DNA of 40,177 bases. It comes from an uncultured Mucilaginibacter sp. (GTDB taxonomy: Bacteria; Bacteroidota; Bacteroidia; Sphingobacteriales; Sphingobacteriaceae). Positions 21,098-30,871 of this stretch are shown here, in pieces. The stretch lies in the NCBI RefSeq assembly GCF_946481715.1, contig NZ_CAMLOV010000034.1, positions 1 to 40,177 on the forward strand, given 5' to 3'. The notes under the pieces were generated by a model. The model had not been told where the DNA came from. It saw only the letters and a list, made by a program, of their open reading frames with translations, and did not search any database. Within the stretch, counting starts at the first letter, position 1. Every line of letters begins with the position of its first letter. A program made the position numbers and the translations under genes.

Positions 21098-22081
21098 TTA
21101 TTGCTGCTGCTGTTGTTGCTGCTGCTGAATTATTTCCATATACCTTTCGTAACTGTTGCGCGATGCAGTTTTTGGTTCGGCTACCGGAAATGTTGAAACG
21201 GTAAATATATCTTTTTCTTGCGGTAAATAGGTCTCATCCTGGTAACCTACCGAAACCGATACCTCCAGTATATGCCTTGCCGAGCCTTTGTAAACGCCCT
21301 TAACCGGCGAGCAATCGCTAAAATTGCGGCCTACGGCCAGGCGTACGTGCATTTCGTTGGCTACGCAGTTATTGGTAGGGTCTAAACCCAGCCATCCATA
21401 TCCGGGCAGGTAAGCTTCTGCCCAGGCGTGGGTTGCGCCTTCTCCGCGCATGCCATCGCGGTTGGGGCAAATGTAACCGCTTACATAGCGGGCAGGTATG
21501 CCTACCAGGCGCAGCATCACCATTAGTATGTGGGCAAAATCCTGGCAAACGCCGGCTTTAAGCGCCCATATCTCGTCCAGCGTAGTTTCTACAGTGGTTA
21601 CGCCTTTTATGTATTCAAAATTTTTGTAAACGTATTCGGTAAATTTTAAGGCTGCACGGTATGGGGTATCGTTGGTTTGGCGCTCGCCCTCTACAATCGG
21701 GAACAGTTCGCTCAGCCCTTCAAAATATTCCTGTTTTAAGAAATCTATGTATGGTACAATGTATTTAATGCTGTATAATTCATCCCATTGTGCTATCGAA
21801 TCCACCTCATCGGTTGGCAAAGGCCGCGGGTGCGTGTTTACCAATACCTGCGAATTGATCACCAGTATATTATGCGGTTCGGTATAGGTAAAGCTGCCTA
21901 CCTCGTTGCCATAATAATCTACATAAGTATCTATTTGCGGGTGCCCGGTAATATTAAGGTCGTGGTTTAAAACATCCTGGTAGATATCTACAATAGGGAA
22001 TAGGATGATCTTATTGGCACTGTCTCTAACCAGGTTATCATACGAATATTTGGTAATGTGCTGTATCTTAAATTCGGGCAT
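21098..22081 (-). CDS. Transglutaminase-like protein with C-terminal poly-Gln tail
   Basis: 327 residues: the bacterial transglutaminase N-terminal beta domain (1-90, IQHITKYSYDNLVRDSANKI), then the core with C179 (KAGVCQDFAHILM), H218 (GATHAWAEAYLPGYGW) and D234 (LGLDPTNN). The final residues 319-327 are nine glutamines encoded by mixed CAG/CAA codons, outside the catalytic domain. This is the canonical operon transglutaminase that accompanies ATP-grasp and alpha-E genes. It is 27 bases upstream of Anbu and about 100 bases downstream of the alpha-E gene. Confidence 0.92.
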   Translation of the reverse strand: MPEFKIQHITKYSYDNLVRDSANKIILFPIVDIYQDVLNHDLNITGHPQIDTYVDYYGNEVGSFTYTEPHNILVINSQVLVNTHPRPLPTDEVDSIAQWDELYSIKYIVPYIDFLKQEYFEGLSELFPIVEGERQTNDTPYRAALKFTEYVYKNFEYIKGVTTVETTLDEIWALKAGVCQDFAHILMVMLRLVGIPARYVSGYICPNRDGMRGEGATHAWAEAYLPGYGWLGLDPTNNCVANEMHVRLAVGRNFSDCSPVKGVYKGSARHILEVSVSVGYQDETYLPQEKDIFTVSTFPVAEPKTASRNSYERYMEIIQQQQQQQQQ

Positions 22082-22115
22082 GGCTTATCAATGTTTTAAT
22101 TTGACGATTTGGAAA

Positions 22116-22152
22116 TTTGAAAATGGAGCACCGGAATACGTGCATTTTCAAA
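22116..22152. repeat. Inverted repeat TTTGAAAATG...CATTTTCAAA
   Basis: Ten-base perfect arms (22116-22125, 22143-22152) lie in the gap between the alpha-E and transglutaminase genes, flanked by further AATTTGAA-like sequence. It resembles short intergenic repeats of Bacteroidota and could form a processing hairpin within the operon transcript. Confidence 0.5.
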
Positions 22153-22185
22153 CCTTCAAATTATCTCATTTTTGAATTCAATTAG

Positions 22186-23121
22186 TTAGGAGTTTGCAAA
22201 GTAGTATTCGTTTAGCGAATTACCAATTTTATACAGGTCATCTTTTATTAATGTTAAAAATTGGTGCAAACCCTGGTTGGTAATGCTTTTTACCGAACTG
22301 TATTTGATATTGCTTTGCAGCCGGCCTACCTGGAAGGATATCTCGCGGTAATCATTCACATTGCTGTTGTTCTTCAGCCTGTCGAAATACCGCTGGATGT
22401 TGTTTACCGAATAAATAACCGAGCGCGGAAAATCATTGTTTAATATGATTTGCTCTATCACGTTCTGCGCCTCCAGCCCGTCGCGGTAGGTTTTAAGGTA
22501 CAGCTCGTATCCGCCTATAGATAAAAGCAAGTGTTTCCAGTAAGTAATATCGGTTAATAAAGTTGGGTTGCTGTTGGTTGGCTTGTATTTTATATCGAGG
22601 ATATCAATCGACTGGATGGCCCGCTCCAAATACTTGCCAATATTCATAAAGCTGCGCCCCTGCCCGCGCTCCATAGTTATCTCCGCGGTGCCGTAGTATA
22701 GCATTACCTGTTTAATTATAACATCCAGCACCGTTATCGGGTCTTCCCGTTGCAGGCGGATGTCCAGCTTAGGATCTTTTACAGTGTGGTAGTACTCATT
22801 AAGGCATTGCCATAAATCCTTGGGGATATGCTCCTGTACGCTGCGGGCGTTTTCGCGGGCGAAGGTGATGATGTTAAGGATGGAATTTTGGTTGCTTTTA
22901 TCAGTAACCATATAGCGCAAAACAGCACGGCTATCGTTGCCCAGCTTTTCTTCCAGTTCTTCGTCCAGCCCCGAAAAAATACGGATAACCGGCGCCCAGG
23001 TAAACCCTTCGGTAGAATCCTGCGAGGAATTATAGTTTATTTTCAGCATCCTCAGGATACCATCGCTCCGTTCTATATAACGGCTTAACCAATAAAAACT
23101 TGCTGCTACCCTGCTTAACAT
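22186..23121 (-). CDS. Alpha-E domain protein
   Basis: 311 residues, predominantly helical, starting MLSRVAASFYWLSRYIERSD. This is the hallmark N-terminus of alpha-E proteins, where the acidic and Arg residues recur (AENxxR-like ISRYIERS). Further blocks are GRSFMNIGKYLERAIQSID and VIYSVNNIQRYF. The family almost always occurs with circularly permuted ATP-grasp and transglutaminase genes, and its molecular role is unknown. It lies 165 bases downstream of the ATP-grasp gene; that gap holds degenerate ATTTCGGATTT repeats. Confidence 0.92.
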   Translation of the reverse strand: MLSRVAASFYWLSRYIERSDGILRMLKINYNSSQDSTEGFTWAPVIRIFSGLDEELEEKLGNDSRAVLRYMVTDKSNQNSILNIITFARENARSVQEHIPKDLWQCLNEYYHTVKDPKLDIRLQREDPITVLDVIIKQVMLYYGTAEITMERGQGRSFMNIGKYLERAIQSIDILDIKYKPTNSNPTLLTDITYWKHLLLSIGGYELYLKTYRDGLEAQNVIEQIILNNDFPRSVIYSVNNIQRYFDRLKNNSNVNDYREISFQVGRLQSNIKYSSVKSITNQGLHQFLTLIKDDLYKIGNSLNEYYFANS

Positions 23122-23129
23122 AATTTCTC

Positions 23130-23175
23130 TATTTCGGATTTCGAATGTTCGATTTCGGATTTATTTTTAATGTCG
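23130..23175. repeat. Short direct repeats of ATTTCGGATTT
   Basis: The gap between the alpha-E and ATP-grasp genes contains two copies of ATTTCGGATTT with an intervening TTCGAA palindrome. The remainder of the gap is T-rich and shows no gene. Confidence 0.4.
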
Positions 23176-23286
23176 ATTTTTTTATTTCTAATATTTGATA
23201 GTTCGAATAACATCTCTTTTTCCTGATTGTAGCGTATGTTTCTTTCTTGGTTCTTGATTCTCACAGTCTTGCTTCTATCCCCCGCC

Positions 23287-24747
23287 TCACGGTGTTGGCG
23301 GGCTCAATACCCATGTGTCCTTACTGCCGCCACCCTGCGAGCTGTTTACTACCAGCGAGCCCTCGGTTAGGGCCACGCGGGTTAGGCCGCCCGGCACAAT
23401 CTCTATCCCATCCGGGCCGCAAAGGGCGTAAGGCCGCAGGTCTATACGCCTTGGCTGTAATAGGCCGCCTATATAGCACGGGGCTGCCGAGAGGCTTATG
23501 GTTGGCTGCGCAATAAAGTTGCGCGGGTCCTTCATTATCTCCAGCTTATACTCTTCAATTTCCTCTTCGGTTGATGCATGGCCCATTAGCATACCATAGC
23601 CACCGCTGCCATTGGTTTTCTTCACCACCATATTATTGATGTTTTTAAAAACATGCTCCCGTTCGTCGGCATTGCTGAGGCGGTGGGTGGGTACGTTCTT
23701 TAAAATAGGCTCCTGGTTAAGGTAATACCTTATCATATCGGGCACATAAATATAGGTGGCCTTATCATCGGCCACGCCGTTGCCTATTGCATTTACAATG
23801 GCTACGTTGCCTTTGCGGTAAGCGCCCATCAGCCCGGCCACGCCCAATACGCTGTTGGGGTTAAATACCAGGGGATCTAAAAACTCATCATCCACCCGGC
23901 GGTATATTACATCTATCTGCTGCAGCCCGGTAGTGGTTTTCATGTACACCTTGTGGTTGTTCACTACAAGGTCGCGCCCTTCTACCAGTTCCACGCCCAT
24001 TAAGCGGGCAAGGGTGGTATGCTCAAAATAAGCCGAATTGTATATACCCGGACTAAGCAAAACGATAGTAGGGCTGCTTATTTGCCTTGGCGATAGCGAA
24101 AGCAGGTTTTTATAAAGGATGGACGGGTACTCGGTAACGCTGCGTACGTTGCAGTTTGGCAACAAGTCCGGAAACAGGCGCTTGGTTATCTCGCGGTTTT
24201 CCAGCATGTAGCTTACGCCCGATGGTGTGCGCAGGTTATCTTCCAGCACGTAAAAAGTACCATCGTGGTCGCGTATCAAATCTATGCCGGCAATATGTAC
24301 ATAAACATCATAAGGCACATCCAGCTGGTACATCTCTCGCAGGAAATGCGGGCAGGAGTAAATGATATCTATAGGTACTATACCGTCCTTAATGATGAAC
24401 TGGTTATGGTAAATATCTTTAAGGAATAAATTGAGGGCGGTAAGGCGCTGTTTGATGCCACGCTCCACAAACTCCCATTCGTCGGCCGTGATGATGCGGG
24501 GGATAATATCGAAAGGGAAAATTTTCTCGATGCCCTCGCCGCTATTGTAAACGGTAAAGGTGATGCCCTGGGTCATGAACAGCCTTTTAGCCAACTCCTC
24601 TTTTTTATTGAGGTCGTCGGGCGATTCTTTCCCTAAATATTCTATCACTTTCTGATAATGGCTGCGAACGATGCTGTTTTCGTTGTACATTTCGTCCCAT
24701 ACGCCATTTATTAGATTGTATTTGTCAAAATGCTGCGCTTCGTACAT
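23287..24747 (-). CDS. Circularly permuted ATP-grasp ligase
   Basis: 486 residues of the circularly permuted type 2 ATP-grasp family, enzymes thought to join amino acids or peptides with ATP. Visible blocks are the N-terminal YNLINGVWDEMY, FPFDIIPRIITADEWEFVERG and IVPIDIIYSCPHFLREM. The nucleotide-site region is DHDGTFYVLEDNLRTPSGVSY, and VYRRVDDEFLDPL and VVKKTNGSGGYGMLMG match the second half. The end is RPYALCGPDGIEIVPGGLTR with a Ser/Gly-rich close. It is the first gene of the five-gene Anbu operon. A purine-rich AAGAGGGAG lies just upstream of the ATG and may serve as an unusually strong ribosome-binding site for this phylum. The product it makes is unknown. Confidence 0.93.
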   Translation of the reverse strand: MYEAQHFDKYNLINGVWDEMYNENSIVRSHYQKVIEYLGKESPDDLNKKEELAKRLFMTQGITFTVYNSGEGIEKIFPFDIIPRIITADEWEFVERGIKQRLTALNLFLKDIYHNQFIIKDGIVPIDIIYSCPHFLREMYQLDVPYDVYVHIAGIDLIRDHDGTFYVLEDNLRTPSGVSYMLENREITKRLFPDLLPNCNVRSVTEYPSILYKNLLSLSPRQISSPTIVLLSPGIYNSAYFEHTTLARLMGVELVEGRDLVVNNHKVYMKTTTGLQQIDVIYRRVDDEFLDPLVFNPNSVLGVAGLMGAYRKGNVAIVNAIGNGVADDKATYIYVPDMIRYYLNQEPILKNVPTHRLSNADEREHVFKNINNMVVKKTNGSGGYGMLMGHASTEEEIEEYKLEIMKDPRNFIAQPTISLSAAPCYIGGLLQPRRIDLRPYALCGPDGIEIVPGGLTRVALTEGSLVVNSSQGGGSKDTWVLSPPTP

Positions 24748-25374
24748 AAAAACTCCCTCTTGTTGCCTAAAATGCCACCGAAATGGACTATAAGATTGTA
24801 AGTATAATCAATAAACGCATTAAAGCAGTATATTTTTTGGTAAATTATGAAAAAAATAAGGTAATTAATACAAGTTTAATATTTTATTCATAGAAAACAT
24901 CTAAATCGCGGCGGTTTTGCGCGCCATTAAAACGGCTTGCTTTAAAATTTAAAAGTTTTGCCCTTGCCTGTCGAAAATTATAATTGGTTGCCGGCCGCTA
25001 AGCCCTTTGCATTGATAGTATGAGAACACGCCGGGGCGGCAATAGTTTCCTGACCCGGCAGAAACAAAACGCCAATAAAGATTCGGAAACGGAGAGCTAT
25101 TTTAATTAGGCCAACAACAAACATCGGCGCCGGTTATTGGCCGAAACAGGCCGGTGTTCGAAAAGTTATTTTTGCGAAAAATGAAGGGCCTTACGTCCGT
25201 CCCGATTTGTGTTGCAACAATAAAAAACCCCGGTAGAAAAGAACAAATTATATACAAACGAAACGGAGGCTAAAAAGCCCCAGTTTTTCAAAGAAAAACA
25301 CCGAAAAATCAAAGATTTTTGAGGGAAAACACCGATGTTTTCCCTCAAAAGCGCTTGCTTTTTGAATTCCGGCC
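24748..25374. other. Gene-free 627-base gap
   Basis: The upstream region of the ATP-grasp operon and the 3' flank of the oxidoreductase gene. The half nearest the ATP-grasp gene is A/T-rich and should hold its promoter, but no exact TAnnTTTG box was found on the minus strand. The other end contains a series of small inverted repeats (25268-25362). A 60-codon leftward frame there overlaps these hairpins and is rejected as a gene. Confidence 0.7.
25268..25362. other. Tandem array of five small inverted repeats
   Basis: In order: GGCT/AGCC (25268-25279); GTTTTTC-aaa-GAAAAAC (25283-25299); AAAAATC-aaa-GATTTTT (25304-25320); an 11-base-arm hairpin GAGGGAAAACA/TGTTTTCCCTC (25321-25346); and AAAAGC/GCTTTT (25347-25362). 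It lies immediately after the stop of the leftward oxidoreductase gene, where transcription termination or mRNA protection would be useful. Confidence 0.6.
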
Positions 25375-27033
25375 TTAAATTTCGCTCAAATATTTGTGCA
25401 CAAAACTGATGGCCATAGAACCCTCGCCCACCGCCGAGGCCACCCGGTTCATGGCACCTGCGCGTACATCGCCAGCCGCAAATATGCCGGGGATGCTGGT
25501 CTCTAACAGGTACGGGTCACGTTTCGATTTCCACATTTTTTCAAAATCCTGGCAACTATTCAGGTCGCGGCCGGTCTCTACAAACCCGCGGTCGTTCTTA
25601 ATAACGTTTTTGCCCAGCCACTCGGTAAAGGGTTTGGCGCCTATAAAAATATATAACGCGTCGGCATCTACAGTTGTATTTTCCTTATTATCAAGGTTTT
25701 GTATGACGAGTTGTTGCAGGCGGTTCTCTCCTTTGGCCTCTACAATTTCGCTACAGGGCATCAAAGTGATGTTGCTTACGCCGCCAATTTGGTCGATAAG
25801 GTATGACGACATGGTGGCGGCGAGGCTCTCCTTCCGAATCAAAATATAAACGTGTTTGGCAAATTTAGACAGGTACATAGCCCCTTGCCCGGCAGAGTTA
25901 CCCCCGCCTACAATGTATACATTGGCGTCTTTGCAGCTGGCAGCCTCCGTCATGGCTGCACCATAATAGATACCCGCACCAGTGAATTTTTCTATGCCAG
26001 GCGTAGTTAACTGCCTGTAATCCACCCCGGTAGTGATAACTACCGATTTGGTAAGCACCTCGGTATCATCATCCATTACTATGGTTTTGTAATTGTCCTT
26101 CAGCTTAATCTCCTTTACCGACTGTGGTGAAAGGAAATCCGTACCAAAGCGGGTAGACTGGGTGATGGCCCTACGCGTAAGGTCGGCACCGCTTAATCCC
26201 GCCGGGAAGCCAAGGTAATTCTCTATGCGTGAGCTTGTTCCCGCCTGCCCACCGGGTGCCTTGCGTTCTATCAATAAAGTCTTCAAACCCTCCGATGAAC
26301 CATATACCGAAGCCGCCAAACCTGCGGGGCCTGCGCCTATAATAACCACGTCATATAGCTCATTCTTAGCCGATTGGCTTAAACCTATCTTGGTGGCTAT
26401 GTCTTTAACGGTAGGTGTTTTTAGTAAGGAGCCATCAGCAAAAATAATAGCCGGCAGGTCTTTTGAGTCCAGTTTATTTAGGCCGGATAGCTTTTTGGCT
26501 TCCTCAGAGTTGGCATCCAACCATAAATAAGGAACGAGATAACCCGATAAAAACTCCTTAATATCGTGGGATTTCGGTGAAAATTGGTAGCCAATAACCT
26601 TAATGCCCTTAAAATCAGGTCGGTAATTGCCTTGCCAGTCTTCCAGCATATCGGTTATTACCGGATATAATTTTTCTTCGGGCGGGTCCCAGGGTTTGGT
26701 GAGGTAGTAATCCAGTTTTACATCGTTTATGGCTTTGATGGCTGCATCTGTATCTGCATAAGCCGTAAGCAGCACCCGCTTGGCATGGGGGAAAAACGAC
26801 AGTGCTTTGCACAGGAAATCAATGCCTTCCATCTCGGGCATGCGCTGGTCTGATACAAACATCGCCACAACCTCGCCTTTGTTTTTCAGTTCCAGCAGGC
26901 TATCCAAAGCTTCTTTTACTGAGGTGGTGCTTAGTATACGGTAATCCTGGCGGTAGTGGTTTTTTAAGTCGCGCGTAATGGCCCGCAGCACCTGTGGGTC
27001 ATCGTCAATAGCAAATATAATAGGTTGGTCCAT
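25375..27033 (-). CDS. Receiver domain fused to thioredoxin-reductase-like flavoenzyme
   Basis: 552 residues. A CheY-like receiver (1-130) has acidic D10-D12, phosphoacceptor D62 (MFVSDQRMPEME), T90 and K113 (YYLTKPWDPP). A thioredoxin-like segment (about 143-218) keeps a cis-Pro region but shows FSPKSHD in place of a CxxC. A pyridine-nucleotide-disulfide-type domain follows, with the FAD loop G233-A-G235-P-A-G238, GGQAGTSSRIENYLGFP, the NAD(P)H loop G376-G-G-N-S-A-G and the C-terminal FAD motif GIFAAGDVRAG. At the position of the thioredoxin-reductase CATC the sequence is YGAAMTEAASC with one cysteine (C367). Fused receiver/flavoenzymes of this kind are known; the electron acceptor is not. 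It follows the kinase gene by 18 bases, so that kinase is its likely phosphodonor. Confidence 0.9.
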   Translation of the reverse strand: MDQPIIFAIDDDPQVLRAITRDLKNHYRQDYRILSTTSVKEALDSLLELKNKGEVVAMFVSDQRMPEMEGIDFLCKALSFFPHAKRVLLTAYADTDAAIKAINDVKLDYYLTKPWDPPEEKLYPVITDMLEDWQGNYRPDFKGIKVIGYQFSPKSHDIKEFLSGYLVPYLWLDANSEEAKKLSGLNKLDSKDLPAIIFADGSLLKTPTVKDIATKIGLSQSAKNELYDVVIIGAGPAGLAASVYGSSEGLKTLLIERKAPGGQAGTSSRIENYLGFPAGLSGADLTRRAITQSTRFGTDFLSPQSVKEIKLKDNYKTIVMDDDTEVLTKSVVITTGVDYRQLTTPGIEKFTGAGIYYGAAMTEAASCKDANVYIVGGGNSAGQGAMYLSKFAKHVYILIRKESLAATMSSYLIDQIGGVSNITLMPCSEIVEAKGENRLQQLVIQNLDNKENTTVDADALYIFIGAKPFTEWLGKNVIKNDRGFVETGRDLNSCQDFEKMWKSKRDPYLLETSIPGIFAAGDVRAGAMNRVASAVGEGSMAISFVHKYLSEI

Positions 27034-27051
27034 GTTGTTTTTAAAGCTTGA

Positions 27052-28455
27052 TTAATCATCATTTATAGGGAAGCAGATCACAAATTCGGTGCTTCCCGGT
27101 ACCGAATGCACTTTTACAGAGCCATTGTGCTGGCGTATAATGCGGGTAACTACATCCAGCCCTAAACCGGTTCCCTTGCCCATATCCTTAGTGGTAAAAA
27201 ACGGGTCGAATATCTGCGATTGCATCTCTTCGGGTATGCCCGGGCCATTGTCTTTTATGGTAACCTGTACAAACTGCCTGTCCTGCTGTGTTTTAATCTC
27301 CAGTATGCCGCCGCCGTTAACCTCCATGGCATCAATGGCGTTGTCGATAACGTTGGTCCAAACCTGGTTTAGCTCGCCGGCCATTGCTTTTACCTGCGGC
27401 AGTTTCAGGTCGAAATTTTCCACTAATTTAATATTGCCTTTCTTTAATTTATAATCCAGCATGGTAAGGGTATTGCGGATGCCGGCGTGGATATCCAGTA
27501 ATTGTTTGTCGCTATCCCTATCCATGTGCGTAAAGTTTTTTACCGATGTTACCAGTTGCGATACCCGCTGCGAGGATTCTTTAATATCTGCTATCATCTT
27601 GGTGGCCAGCAGGTAATTATTCACCCAAGCCAGTACAATCTCTAACTGTTCCGAAACAGGTGTGCATGCGTTCATGTGGTCGAGGTCCTCGGGCTTAAAG
27701 TCAAAATCAACAAGGTTCTCGGCAAATTCTAGCTTTTTTATCTCATGGTCCATCAGCCAATCTGCCAGGTCATCCTCCCTGTCGGCCTTATCCATCATGC
27801 TTAAAACGGGTCTGTCTGCTTGGTTGGCGCGGGTAACAAGCAGTTCGTTAATGGCATCCACCTTCTCGGGTTTCATATTAAGGCTTACGATGGCTTTAAA
27901 CAGAGCGGGCAGGTTTTGTATCTGCGCATTTAAAGAAGAAGCGCCCCTGCTAATTGCTGCTGCGGGGTTATTCAGCTCGTGCGCCAGCCCGGCGGATAGC
28001 TTACCCAACGCAAACATCTTCTCGTTTTGCTGCTGCAGCGACGTAAAATCGCGTACGCGGCTGGTCATGGTATGAACCAGGGCCTCGGTGAGTTCATAAT
28101 GCAGTTGCGTTGCCTCTTTTATTTTCTCTGCCGGCACCCGGAAAATACGGCCTTTTTTGGTGCATTCGCCAAAGCCGGGCGTTTTTTTTGCCCGGGAGAA
28201 TGGCAGGTAGCCTGTAATGCCCTGCTCACGGATAACGGCTATCTCGCGGAATTTCCCGTTCTGCATAACACAAATACGGATGCGGCCCTCCAGTATAACC
28301 GAGGTCATGTTTACTGGTTCGCCCACTTCAAATACGCGCTGGCCTTCTTCCATCTCTACTATTTCGCCATTATCTATAAACCATTGCAGTTGCTCATCGG
28401 GCACCTCGCTTAGTACCGGGATGGCTTTCAGTTCGTTTAATGTTATTTCGATCAT
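27052..28455 (-). CDS. Histidine kinase with N-terminal cNMP-binding-type domain
   Basis: 467 residues from the ATG at 28455, which overlaps the globin stop as ATGA. A longer in-frame start at 28497 would only add a stretch inside the globin gene. The Crp-like beta domain (about 10-135: IPVLSEVPDEQLQWFIDNGE, GQRVFEVGEPVNMTSVILEG) lacks the cAMP-contacting Arg-Ser/Thr-Ala cassette, so another ligand or none is likely. HisKA has H159 (GKLSAGLAHELNNPAAAI), and the ATPase shows VIDNAIDAME, DNGPGIPEE and GKGTGLGLDVV. There are no membrane helices. Lying between the globin and the receiver-flavoenzyme genes, it probably links haem or redox state to phosphorylation of the latter. Confidence 0.9.
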   Translation of the reverse strand: MIEITLNELKAIPVLSEVPDEQLQWFIDNGEIVEMEEGQRVFEVGEPVNMTSVILEGRIRICVMQNGKFREIAVIREQGITGYLPFSRAKKTPGFGECTKKGRIFRVPAEKIKEATQLHYELTEALVHTMTSRVRDFTSLQQQNEKMFALGKLSAGLAHELNNPAAAISRGASSLNAQIQNLPALFKAIVSLNMKPEKVDAINELLVTRANQADRPVLSMMDKADREDDLADWLMDHEIKKLEFAENLVDFDFKPEDLDHMNACTPVSEQLEIVLAWVNNYLLATKMIADIKESSQRVSQLVTSVKNFTHMDRDSDKQLLDIHAGIRNTLTMLDYKLKKGNIKLVENFDLKLPQVKAMAGELNQVWTNVIDNAIDAMEVNGGGILEIKTQQDRQFVQVTIKDNGPGIPEEMQSQIFDPFFTTKDMGKGTGLGLDVVTRIIRQHNGSVKVHSVPGSTEFVICFPINDD

Positions 28456-28928
28456 GCTTCCGGTATATAAGGTCCACCCGGTACGCCCCACCCCCATTTG
28501 GGCATAGGCGCACCCTCCTGTAAAGGGTTATCGGTTAATTTTGAATTGATTACTGCAATGCGGCTGCCCCACTCGAGGTAGGCCAACAAGGCCGAGCGGA
28601 ATTCCGGGTCATCGGCCAGTTGCAGTTCGTCCACGCTTTGCAGTAATAAGGCTATCCAACGCTGGCGCTGCTCCTCGCTTAGTAATTTGCCTACATGATG
28701 GGCCACCATTTTGGCGTGGCTGCCATCGTCGCCGTGCGTGTACAGTGCGGGGCCACCAAAAACCTCGGCTATAAAATGCGCTACATGTTTGGTATGCGCG
28801 GCAGACATTGTTTTAAACACGGGCTCCAGCAAATCGTCTTTTAATACTTTATCGTAAAAAACTTTGGTGAGGTTTTCTAAAGTATCGTTACCGCCCACCC
28901 ATTCGTACAAGGTTGGTATGTTTTTCAT
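28452..28928 (-). CDS. Group II-like truncated haemoglobin
   Basis: 158 residues with a truncated-globin fold: TLYEWVGGNDTLENLTKVFY at the start, then DLLEPVFKTMSAAHTKHVAH, the FGGP turn and HHVGKLLSEEQRQRWIALL. Aligning the last block with group II globins places H78 as the proximal haem ligand. The C-terminus carries an extra Pro/Gly/Trp-rich tail (PMPKWGWGVPGGPYIPEA) beyond the globin core. Such globins bind O2, NO or peroxide. It is the first gene of a three-gene operon, and its TGA overlaps the kinase ATG, so equal synthesis of globin and kinase is expected. Confidence 0.9.
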   Translation of the reverse strand: MKNIPTLYEWVGGNDTLENLTKVFYDKVLKDDLLEPVFKTMSAAHTKHVAHFIAEVFGGPALYTHGDDGSHAKMVAHHVGKLLSEEQRQRWIALLLQSVDELQLADDPEFRSALLAYLEWGSRIAVINSKLTDNPLQEGAPMPKWGWGVPGGPYIPEA

Positions 28929-28995
28929 AGTTTATAAAATTAGTATAAATAGCTTTTAATATCCAATGGCTAAAAATTTAAATAAACAAGCACCT

Positions 28996-29025
28996 TGCCG
29001 TTTGCAGGCAAATAATGCCGTTTGC
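28996..29025 (+). promoter_or_regulatory. Direct repeat TGCCGTTTGC x2, possible LytTR binding site
   Basis: Identical 10-mers at 28996-29005 and 29016-29025 are offset by 20 bases, about two helix turns. Each contains CCGTTTG, close to the GTT-centred half-site of LytTR regulators, which bind two direct repeats about 21 bases apart. The site lies 39 bases upstream of the LytS gene whose partner is a LytTR protein. Confidence 0.45.
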
Positions 29026-29063
29026 CGAATAATTCATGACTGAGCATTTATATTTCTAATTTT

Positions 29064-30137
29064 ATGCTGAATCATTATAACACATTGTTAAACAACAGCA
29101 TTTATACCGCCCGTACCCCTTTAAAAAGGGTTGTAATGCATATTCTTTTTTGGATAGCGTATTATTTATACGATGGGCCAATCACCTCCAATATAGAGGC
29201 CAACCCGATGAGCCGGCTGCAAATAGCCGCCATTGAGCTGCCGGTAAAAATTCTGGCGGCATATTTTACGCTTTACCTGCTACAGCATTTTTATAACGGA
29301 CAGCGGAAGCCGGCCATATTTTTTTTATACCTCATTCCTTCTATCCTGTTTTTTGGGATGGCGCAACGGTTTGTGAGTTATAAGGTAATTTACCCCATTT
29401 ATTACCCCGAGGGCCTAAGCCGCGCTTTATGGTATGTGCCAAAGGTTATTATCCTCACATTCGGTGTATACTCAGTTGTAGCCATCGTTATTGTCATCCA
29501 CCTGCTAAAGCAGTGGTATATGGACCAGCAGGAGCGCCAGGCGCTAAAAAATGAAAAACTGGAGGCTGAATTAAAGTACCTTAAGGCGCAAATCCACCCT
29601 CACTTTTTATTCAACACCCTTAATAACCTTTATGCGCTCACTATTACCAATTCGAAAAAAGCGCCAGAGATAGTTTATAAACTTTCGCAGCTGATGAGCT
29701 ATATGCTTTATGATAGCAACAAACCCTTTGTGCCGCTACAGAAGGAGATAGATTATATAGAGAATTATATCACACTGGAAAAAATACGTTACGAAGACAG
29801 GCTGGACGTATCATTAAACATCCTTACCGCCACAGAGAGTATCAGCATTGCGCCTTTATTGATATTGCCATTTGTAGAGAATAGTTTTAAGCATGGCTTC
29901 GGCAACGATATTGGCAAGGTATGGGTACATATAGATATTTTGGTGAGCGACGGGCAACTGATTATTAAGGTGGAGAACAGCAAAGGCACACCGGAATTAA
30001 ATTCCGCGCCGGTAAGCGGTATAGGGTTGGTTAACCTAAAGAAACGATTAGAACTGATTTATAAAGACAGGTACGACCTCCAAATTATAGACGGTGACAC
30101 CTACCTGGTTATTTTAAAGCTTAAATTAGAAGGATAG
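29064..30137 (+). CDS. LytS/YehU-type sensor histidine kinase
   Basis: 357 residues. Four hydrophobic segments occupy about residues 22-150 (KRVVMHILFWIAYYLYD, AAIELPVKILAAYFTLYLLQ, IFFLYLIPSILFFGMA, VIILTFGVYSVVAIVIVIHL). A coiled coil (150-172) leads to the His_kinase domain with H180 (QIHPHFLFNTLNNLY), the N-box VENSFKHGFG and GIGLVNLKKRLELIY. This is the typical Bacteroidota LytS-like kinase with an uncharacterised membrane sensor. It overlaps functionally with the response regulator two bases downstream. Confidence 0.93.
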   Translation: MLNHYNTLLNNSIYTARTPLKRVVMHILFWIAYYLYDGPITSNIEANPMSRLQIAAIELPVKILAAYFTLYLLQHFYNGQRKPAIFFLYLIPSILFFGMAQRFVSYKVIYPIYYPEGLSRALWYVPKVIILTFGVYSVVAIVIVIHLLKQWYMDQQERQALKNEKLEAELKYLKAQIHPHFLFNTLNNLYALTITNSKKAPEIVYKLSQLMSYMLYDSNKPFVPLQKEIDYIENYITLEKIRYEDRLDVSLNILTATESISIAPLLILPFVENSFKHGFGNDIGKVWVHIDILVSDGQLIIKVENSKGTPELNSAPVSGIGLVNLKKRLELIYKDRYDLQIIDGDTYLVILKLKLEG

Positions 30138-30139
30138 TT

Positions 30140-30871
30140 ATGAGGTGTTTAGTGATAGACGACGAACCCCTGGCCATACAACTGCTCCGCTCTTATATTG
30201 ATAGGGTTGATGGATTGGTGCTGGTTAAATGCTGCTCTAACGCGGTGGAAGCTTTGAGCAGCTTACGCTCGGGTCAAATAGACCTGCTTTTTTTGGATAT
30301 ACAAATGCCCAAAATAACGGGAATAGACCTGCTTAAATCATTATCCGTAAAACCCAAGGTAATATTTACTACCGCTTACCGCGAGTATGCTATCGAGGCT
30401 TTCGATTTGGACGTGGTTGATTACCTGCTAAAACCTATCAGCTTTGAGCGCTTTTTACGTGCTGTAGGCAAGGTATATACTTTTAAAACCCCCGACGAGC
30501 CGGTCGGCACCGATTATAACTTGCTGCACGATTATAACGCCTCCTACATTTTTTTACGCGCCGAGCGCGAAATGGTAAAGGTGTATTTAAAAGATATATT
30601 ATACATTGAGAGCTTGCGAGATTACGTGCGCGTAAAAACTACCGACAGCCAAATTATCTCTTACAATAAAATAAGCTACCTGGAGCAAAAACTGCCCGAG
30701 AACAAGTTTATCCGGGTGCACCGCTCCTTTATTGTTGCTTTCGATAGGATACTAACCTTTACGCCAAACGCGCTTAAGTTGAGTAATATGCTTATCCCTA
30801 TTGGGCGTAATTATAAAAGCGAAACCATTAAAGCGCTGAACCGCTATAATATCCTTTTCGAGCAGCAATAG
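30140..30871 (+). CDS. LytTR-family response regulator
   Basis: 243 residues. The receiver (1-120) has D8/D9, phosphoacceptor D53 (LLFLDIQMPKITG) and K97 (YLLKPISFERF). The LytTR DNA-binding domain (about 143-240) shows KVYLKDILYIESLRDYVRV and the closing RVHRSFIVAFDRI. It is the partner of the kinase two bases upstream. Its stop codon abuts the stop of the convergent DUF5916 gene with no spacer. A candidate site lies upstream of the pair (28996-29025), suggesting autoregulation. Confidence 0.94.
   Translation: MRCLVIDDEPLAIQLLRSYIDRVDGLVLVKCCSNAVEALSSLRSGQIDLLFLDIQMPKITGIDLLKSLSVKPKVIFTTAYREYAIEAFDLDVVDYLLKPISFERFLRAVGKVYTFKTPDEPVGTDYNLLHDYNASYIFLRAEREMVKVYLKDILYIESLRDYVRVKTTDSQIISYNKISYLEQKLPENKFIRVHRSFIVAFDRILTFTPNALKLSNMLIPIGRNYKSETIKALNRYNILFEQQ

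What the first reader, a model, noticed from the sequence alone, without database searches (positions are those of the whole stretch)
25375..28928. Candidate haem-linked redox signalling module: globin, kinase and receiver-flavoenzyme
A truncated globin gene overlaps (ATGA) a soluble histidine kinase with a cNMP-type domain lacking the cAMP cassette, and a receiver fused to a thioredoxin-reductase-like flavoenzyme follows after 18 bases. The tight layout argues that globin ligation or redox state alters kinase activity and that phosphorylation of D62 tunes an enzyme directly. Each part is known, but I do not know of a described function for the three-gene combination.
Basis: partly seen in the sequence, partly recalled or inferred. 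Interest (0 to 1): 0.7.

Follow-up and report, generated by a model that had tools for sequence, protein, structure and literature searches.

The report
Kinase-controlled cysteine-less flavoenzyme with added globin
Three bacterial genes form one tight operon: an old, widespread kinase and flavoenzyme signalling pair, joined in one small branch of Mucilaginibacter by a globin, and the flavoenzyme, though often named thioredoxin reductase, lacks the cysteines that such an enzyme needs.

Summary
In detail: globin, histidine kinase and receiver-flavoenzyme lie head to tail on the minus strand (ATGA overlap, 18-base gap), followed by a strong hairpin. Kinase plus receiver-flavoenzyme is a real, old pair: the kinase lies directly upstream in 71 of 80 related loci, and the pair recurs in cyanobacteria, Deinococcus, actinobacteria and Burkholderiales. 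D62 is kept in all 87 receiver-bearing proteins aligned. The globin is a late local addition: it is near the pair in 8 of 149 same-genus genomes and 1 of 395 of a phylum sample; elsewhere in the genus its homologue often lies beside cdaA. The usual third partner is a UBP-type zinc finger (38 of 80 loci). A second finding: the flavoenzyme is not a thioredoxin reductase by chemistry. The CXXC site is absent in 94 of 94 aligned proteins, and its glutaredoxin-like domain reads SPKS where CPxC is expected. Likeliest role: a phosphorelay-gated NAD(P)H:FAD enzyme of redox or electrophile stress, with a co-expressed group II truncated globin. As I recall, the system was predicted in 2011 as a cyclic-nucleotide and ZF-UBP redox signalling system. 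This is a new variant of a known kind.

The parts
28452..28928 (-). truncated globin gene, 158 aa, group II-like; Y25 (B10), H78 (F8, proximal) and W91 (G8) by alignment to solved group II globins; C-terminal tail rich in G, P and W
   Evidence: PF01152; best solved relatives; helix-position names and group assignment recalled
28452..28455 (-). ATGA overlap of globin stop and kinase start
   Evidence: kept in 7 of 8 relatives with this linkage
27052..28455 (-). soluble histidine kinase, 467 aa
28108..28359 (-). degenerate cNMP-type domain of the kinase (aa 33-116), without the cyclic-nucleotide cassette
   Evidence: 28.7 bits against cut-off 27.5; alignment
27979..27981 (-). H159, presumed phospho-acceptor histidine of the H-box (AHELNNP)
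   Evidence: invariant
27664..27912 (-). helical insert (aa 182-264) between the two long dimerisation helices of the kinase
   Evidence: helices 120-180 and 268-313 flank it; W233 invariant and E227 nearly so
27064..27375 (-). HATPase_c catalytic domain (aa 361-464)
25375..27033 (-). receiver-glutaredoxin-like-flavoenzyme fusion, 552 aa
26680..27018 (-). receiver domain (aa 6-118)
   Evidence: D62, T90, K113 in 87 of 87 and D10, D11 in 86 of 87 receiver-bearing proteins, the one miss being an ORF called short
26848..26850 (-). D62, presumed phospho-acceptor aspartate
   Evidence: 87 of 87 receiver-bearing proteins
26389..26604 (-). glutaredoxin/thioredoxin-like domain (aa 144-215, beta-alpha-beta-alpha-beta-beta-alpha) with SPKS at the CPxC place (aa 152-155)
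   Evidence: secondary structure; residues; fold name inferred from the order of strands and helices
25378..26370 (-). thioredoxin-reductase-fold FAD/NAD(P)H domain (aa 222-552)
25951..25962 (-). place of the missing CXXC (aa 358-361, here GAAM)
   Evidence: no CXXC at this place in 94 of 94 aligned proteins
25318..25349 (-). hairpin after the last gene, 14-bp stem followed by a U-rich stretch, probable terminator
   Evidence: -34.4 kcal/mol for the 97-nt stretch, z -4.67, 0 of 200 shuffles fold as well
28929..29063 (.). 135-bp divergent intergenic region that should hold the operon promoter; no match to the recalled Bacteroidota -33/-7 consensus

Best explanation
The core is a two-component pair. 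A soluble kinase with a degenerate cNMP-type sensor domain and an unusual helical insert in its dimerisation domain phosphorylates D62 of a receiver that is fused to a thioredoxin-reductase-fold flavoenzyme. Phosphorylation gates that enzyme directly (inferred). Both sites that would carry thiol chemistry have no cysteine, so the enzyme is most likely an NAD(P)H:FAD oxidoreductase that hands electrons to something other than thioredoxin, in a redox or electrophile stress response. A UBP zinc-finger protein is its usual partner. In one Mucilaginibacter clade a group II truncated globin gene came to lie in front of the kinase gene and was kept there with overlapping reading frames. Its likeliest role is as a co-expressed protein of O2, NO or peroxide chemistry, not as the kinase's sensor. 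Shown here: gene layout, domain content, conservation of the pair, loss of both cysteine sites, rarity of the globin linkage. Inferred: phosphotransfer, gating, substrate, globin role.
For: Pair: kinase directly upstream on the same strand in 71 of 80 loci, 0.75 to 0.96 kb upstream in 5, not visible in 4, of which 2 lie at contig ends. The pair recurs in Nostoc, Gloeothece, Deinococcus, Streptomyces, Tsukamurella and Caballeronia; by coordinates in 9 of 10 plasmid records with a hit over 99 % or more of the length. D62, T90 and K113 in 87 of 87 receiver-bearing proteins. Cysteine loss: 0 of 94 aligned proteins (window included) have CXXC at the active place; the glutaredoxin-like site is S at position 152 in 89 of 94 and never C, and C at position 155 in 2 of 94. 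NCBIfam thioredoxin-disulfide reductase model 234.5 bits against cut-off 343.45. Zinc finger: 38 of 80 loci, 34 of them within 180 bases downstream (PF02148 checked on one member); in the genus 112 of the 115 genomes with the flavoenzyme also have the zinc finger against 19 of the 34 without it, and 60 of 115 have it within 3 kb, all on the same strand. Stress neighbours: histidine-specific methyltransferase with FGE/DinB protein in 7 of 84 loci (Pfam on one member each), OsmC and aldo/keto reductase, S-(hydroxymethyl)mycothiol dehydrogenase. Globin: 8 of 149 near the pair; one origin of the linkage not ruled out by the tree.
Against: No phosphotransfer, haem or flavin measurement exists here. 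The kinase has no recognised sensor ligand. The 80 loci are the best 80 of 585, so they are weighted to Bacteroidota. Co-presence statistics are not corrected for kinship, and draft contigs can hide linkage. Two loci (L041, L046) have the fusion without a kinase beside it. Stress neighbours are a minority of loci and differ between lineages. A single cysteine (C367) is kept in 81 of 94, so some thiol chemistry is not excluded. Against the view of the globin as a bystander: the overlap is kept in 7 of 8 genomes although the flavoenzymes of those seven have drifted to 84 % identity with the window's, and globin and flavoenzyme co-occur more than expected in the genus (62 of 115 against 9 of 34, P 0.006 uncorrected).
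Confidence: 0.62

Rival explanations
1. The flavoenzyme is the globin's reductase: NAD(P)H to FAD to haem, gated by phosphorylation, so that globin and enzyme together act as a split flavohaemoglobin that removes NO or peroxide in this clade.
For: Group II globins need a reductant (recalled). The enzyme keeps FAD and NAD(P)H motifs but has no thiol outlet, so an acceptor other than a disulfide is needed. Tight overlap kept in 7 of 8 genomes. Co-presence in the genus exceeds expectation, P 0.006 uncorrected.
Against: 107 of 115 genus genomes with the enzyme have no globin near it, and 53 of 115 have none detected. In a phylum sample 53 of 395 genomes have the enzyme and 6 of 395 the globin. 54 genus genomes have both, but apart.
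Confidence: 0.15
2. One reading: globin ligation or redox state changes the activity of the kinase by direct contact, making a haem-linked sensor for the phosphorelay.
For: ATGA overlap and gene order globin-kinase; the kinase's own sensor domain lacks a cyclic-nucleotide cassette.
Against: The same kinase family is near the fusion in 76 of 80 loci, of which only 2 have the globin, so the kinase works without it. In 63 of 71 genus genomes with the globin it is not near the pair.
Confidence: 0.1
3. The flavoenzyme is itself the redox sensor: a pseudo-reductase that reads NAD(P)H or flavin redox state and works back on the kinase or on the zinc-finger protein through the receiver.
For: Loss of both cysteine sites while FAD and NAD(P)H motifs are kept; the same flavoenzyme core is elsewhere fused straight to a cNMP-type domain, as a sensor-effector unit would be.
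Against: A receiver is normally the output side of a kinase; strong conservation of the FAD/NAD(P)H domain fits a turning-over enzyme as well.
Confidence: 0.1

Closest known systems
Bacterial cyclic-nucleotide/ZF-UBP redox signalling system (Burroughs, Iyer and Aravind, Mol. BioSyst. 2011, doi 10.1039/c1mb05061c; not held; content recalled from its abstract, title seen in a reference list)
   Same: as recalled: cyclic-nucleotide-type domain, redox enzyme and ZF-UBP protein in one predicted system; the gene neighbourhoods seen here fit it
   Different: in the window the zinc finger is not linked and a globin is; the kinase's cNMP domain has lost its cassette
Receiver-thioredoxin reductase response regulators (Galperin and colleagues 2018, PMC5847659; [quoted passage not shown]
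   Same: same domain fusion
   Different: the passages seen do not mention missing cysteines, a kinase partner or a globin
cNMP-domain 'thioredoxin-disulfide reductase' fusions (plasmid records)
   Same: same glutaredoxin-like plus flavoenzyme core, same missing CXXC
   Different: sensor domain fused directly to the enzyme, no receiver
Low-molecular-weight thioredoxin reductase and AhpF
   Different: CXXC missing; score below the NCBIfam cut-off
Group II truncated haemoglobins
   Same: Pfam match, nearest solved structures, proximal His, B10 Tyr and G8 Trp (residue roles recalled)
   Different: C-terminal tail; operon with a kinase

Membership tests
Thioredoxin-disulfide reductase (TIGR01292) | score above the curated cut-off | tested here: not met
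   234.5 bits against 343.45
Thioredoxin-disulfide reductase (TIGR01292) | redox-active CXXC next to the NADPH domain | tested here: not met
   GAAM at aa 358-361; absent in 94 of 94 aligned proteins
Thioredoxin-disulfide reductase (TIGR01292) | two-domain FAD/NADPH fold | tested here: met
Two-component pair | H-box histidine and HATPase in one protein, receiver with acceptor Asp in the other, genes linked | tested here: met
Two-component pair | phosphotransfer between the two | not testable with these tools
   needs an assay
Group II truncated haemoglobin | PF01152 match, proximal His, G8 Trp, B10 Tyr | tested here: met
   51.3 bits against 21; alignment; residue roles recalled
Group II truncated haemoglobin | haem binding | not testable with these tools
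   needs the protein
Cyclic-nucleotide/ZF-UBP redox signalling system (2011) | linked ZF-UBP gene | tested here: not met
   none beside the window's pair (ORFs of 80 aa and more); linked in 38 of 80 related loci and 60 of 115 genus genomes, in none of the 22 closest; the 8 globin-linked genomes carry it unlinked
Cyclic-nucleotide/ZF-UBP redox signalling system (2011) | cNMP-type domain with TrxR-fold enzyme | tested here: met
   the definition is recalled
Haem-based sensor kinase (globin-coupled sensor) | haem domain fused to, or shown to act on, the kinase | tested here: inconclusive
   no globin or other haem family among the kinase's Pfam matches; action in trans not testable

The most novel reading that the evidence does not exclude
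A two-component system whose output is not gene expression but electrons: phosphorylation of D62 opens a cysteine-free NAD(P)H:FAD enzyme that reduces a separately encoded truncated globin, a split flavohaemoglobin under kinase control, evolved once in a Mucilaginibacter clade from a widespread kinase-flavoenzyme module whose native acceptor is unknown.
Probability: 0.12. Interest if true: 0.8.

Novelty: new variant of a known kind. Interest (0 to 1): 0.4.

Why it matters
The module is widespread, and some sources name it 'thioredoxin reductase (NADPH)' or 'fused response regulator/thioredoxin-disulfide reductase', others 'FAD-dependent oxidoreductase'. All 94 proteins aligned here lack the CXXC that the first two names imply. 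What the enzyme reduces is open, and a redox enzyme gated directly by phosphorylation would be an uncommon kind of response-regulator output. The globin clade offers one candidate acceptor that can be tested with three purified proteins.

Tried and rejected
Globin as a general member of the system: rejected by counts (2 of 80, 8 of 149, 1 of 395; with 65). Haem binding by the kinase itself: no haem family among its Pfam matches, and no His or Cys among the invariant columns of aa 33-116. Cyclic nucleotide as the kinase's ligand: the cassette is absent in the window's kinase, though some relatives there keep its G-E part, so it is unlikely but not excluded. Promoter: the recalled Bacteroidota -33/-7 pattern has 2 matches in the window, none before the globin, with 2.2 expected by chance. 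Unlinked zinc-finger loci of six genomes gave no lead by eye; no family search was run on their neighbours. Fold searches of the kinase matched the catalytic core; whether the helical insert has a known fold was barely tested. That I found no paper on the three-gene combination rests on the searches and 82 of an open-licence library; I saw listings, and passages of three papers. Phage records hold one unannotated relative that covers 80 % or more of the query; not followed.
Full report
What is there. The window reads as Mucilaginibacter-like: the nearest named database proteins are Mucilaginibacter and the nearest named locus is M. gilvus at 96 % for the flavoenzyme. The globin stop and kinase start share ATGA, the next gap is 18 bases, and a hairpin with a 14-bp stem follows the last gene, so the unit is probably a closed three-gene operon. 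A divergent LytTR-type kinase and regulator pair begins 135 bases away.

The flavoenzyme is not a thioredoxin reductase by chemistry. In an alignment of 94 proteins (the window, 80 genome loci, 6 receiver fusions, 4 cNMP fusions and 3 short forms from plasmids) none has CXXC at the active place: position 358 is G in 91 and A in 3, and position 361 is M, T, N or S in 83. The glutaredoxin-like site is S at position 152 in 89 of 94 and S at position 155 in 77 of 94; cysteine appears only at 155, in 2 of 94. The FAD and NAD(P)H regions are kept; R400 is invariant. One cysteine at a different place, C367, is kept in 81 of 94. CXXC motifs elsewhere in the chain occur in 2 proteins. The NCBIfam model for thioredoxin-disulfide reductase is missed by a wide margin.

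The pair is old. Of 80 genome loci (the best 80 of 585 confirmed, so weighted to Bacteroidota) the kinase is directly upstream on the same strand in 71, 0.75 to 0.96 kb upstream in 5, and not seen in 4, of which 2 (L042, L067) start within 200 bases of a contig end and 2 (L041, L046) really lack it nearby. Among plasmid records 10 have hits over 99 % or more of the receiver fusion. The kinase lies beside it in 9 by coordinates; in the tenth (Nostoc edaphicum) the better of two kinase places is 8.7 kb away. I opened seven of the ten (the seventh has no annotation). D62, T90 and K113 are present in all 87 receiver-bearing proteins.

The usual third partner is a UBP-type zinc finger (PF02148 on one member; the others by a profile made here), in 38 of 80 loci, 34 of them within 180 bases downstream of the flavoenzyme. 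By annotation it also follows the pair in Streptomyces and Tsukamurella, lies beside the cNMP fusion in Rhodococcus with thioredoxin and ClpB, and beside a short form in Burkholderia pyrrocinia. It is absent beside the pair in Nostoc, Deinococcus, Caballeronia and Gloeothece. In the genus (149 genomes) 115 have the flavoenzyme at E 1e-100 or better, 131 the zinc finger, 112 both; 60 have them within 3 kb, all on the same strand (Fisher P 7e-9, not corrected for kinship). Other neighbours point to thiol or electrophile stress: a histidine-specific methyltransferase with an FGE/DinB protein in 7 of 84 loci, aldo/keto reductase, OsmC, DoxX, S-(hydroxymethyl)mycothiol dehydrogenase. These are minorities.

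The globin is a late addition. It lies in only 2 of the 80 loci. In the genus 71 of 149 genomes have a homologue, but only 8 have it within 5 kb of the flavoenzyme, all in the group of 22 genomes whose flavoenzyme is at least 80 % identical to the window's. None of those 22 has the zinc finger linked, though all 8 globin-linked ones keep it elsewhere. I read 35 globin loci: 32 in the genus, 3 outside it; two genomes gave two loci each. Of the 32, 8 are next to the kinase or one insert away, 17 lie beside a diadenylate cyclase (cdaA) and 7 elsewhere; a polyprenyl synthetase is a neighbour in 10 (Pfam on one member each). Most of the remaining genus matches were not read. In a phylum sample of 395 genomes 53 have the flavoenzyme (in 5 of them only the part after the receiver matches) and 6 the globin; one, the M. 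gilvus genome itself, has them together. The globin tree does not rule out a single origin of the linkage. Where the linkage exists it is kept tightly: ATGA in 7 of 8, with 1130 bases between the genes in the eighth.

How it likely works. The kinase phosphorylates D62; the receiver changes the access of the flavoenzyme to NAD(P)H or to its acceptor. The acceptor is probably not thioredoxin. This is a signalling chain whose end point is an enzyme. The globin, translated with the kinase, adds O2, NO or peroxide chemistry in this clade. It may take electrons from the flavoenzyme, which is the boldest reading that the evidence leaves open, but the enzyme must have another acceptor in the many genomes without a globin.

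What is known. Receiver-thioredoxin reductase fusions are mentioned in a 2018 census of archaeal two-component systems (PMC5847659; passages read). A 2011 paper by Burroughs, Iyer and Aravind predicted, as I recall its abstract, that bacterial ZF-UBP domains belong to a cyclic-nucleotide-dependent redox signalling system; it is not held, and I saw only its title in a reference list. I found no experimental paper in the searches listed under Tried and rejected. The window is a variant of that system with the zinc finger unlinked, the nucleotide cassette lost and a globin added.

Noticed in passing
window 21098-24747 (-): Circularly permuted ATP-grasp, Alpha-E and transglutaminase-like genes in a row; the transglutaminase-like protein ends in nine glutamines.
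   Followed up: no
window 29064-30871 (+): Divergent His_kinase (PF06580) and LytTR-type regulator pair starting 135 bases from the globin gene; it could regulate the operon.
   Followed up: no
L053, L056, L061, L069: An aldo/keto reductase gene sits between kinase and flavoenzyme in four Aquimarina loci (Pfam on one).
   Followed up: partly
L014, L015, L018, L019, L045, L064, L072: Histidine-specific methyltransferase plus FGE/DinB protein (ergothioneine-type pair, name recalled) near the kinase-flavoenzyme pair in 7 of 84 loci.
   Followed up: partly
L083:3484-4914 and L082:1029-2426: A second kinase of the same family lies upstream of the pair in a Caballeronia and a Deinococcus plasmid, so one flavoenzyme may have two kinases.
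   Followed up: no
window 25273-25334: Two 31-base near repeats ending in AAAACACCG just beyond or within the hairpin region after the last gene.
   Followed up: no
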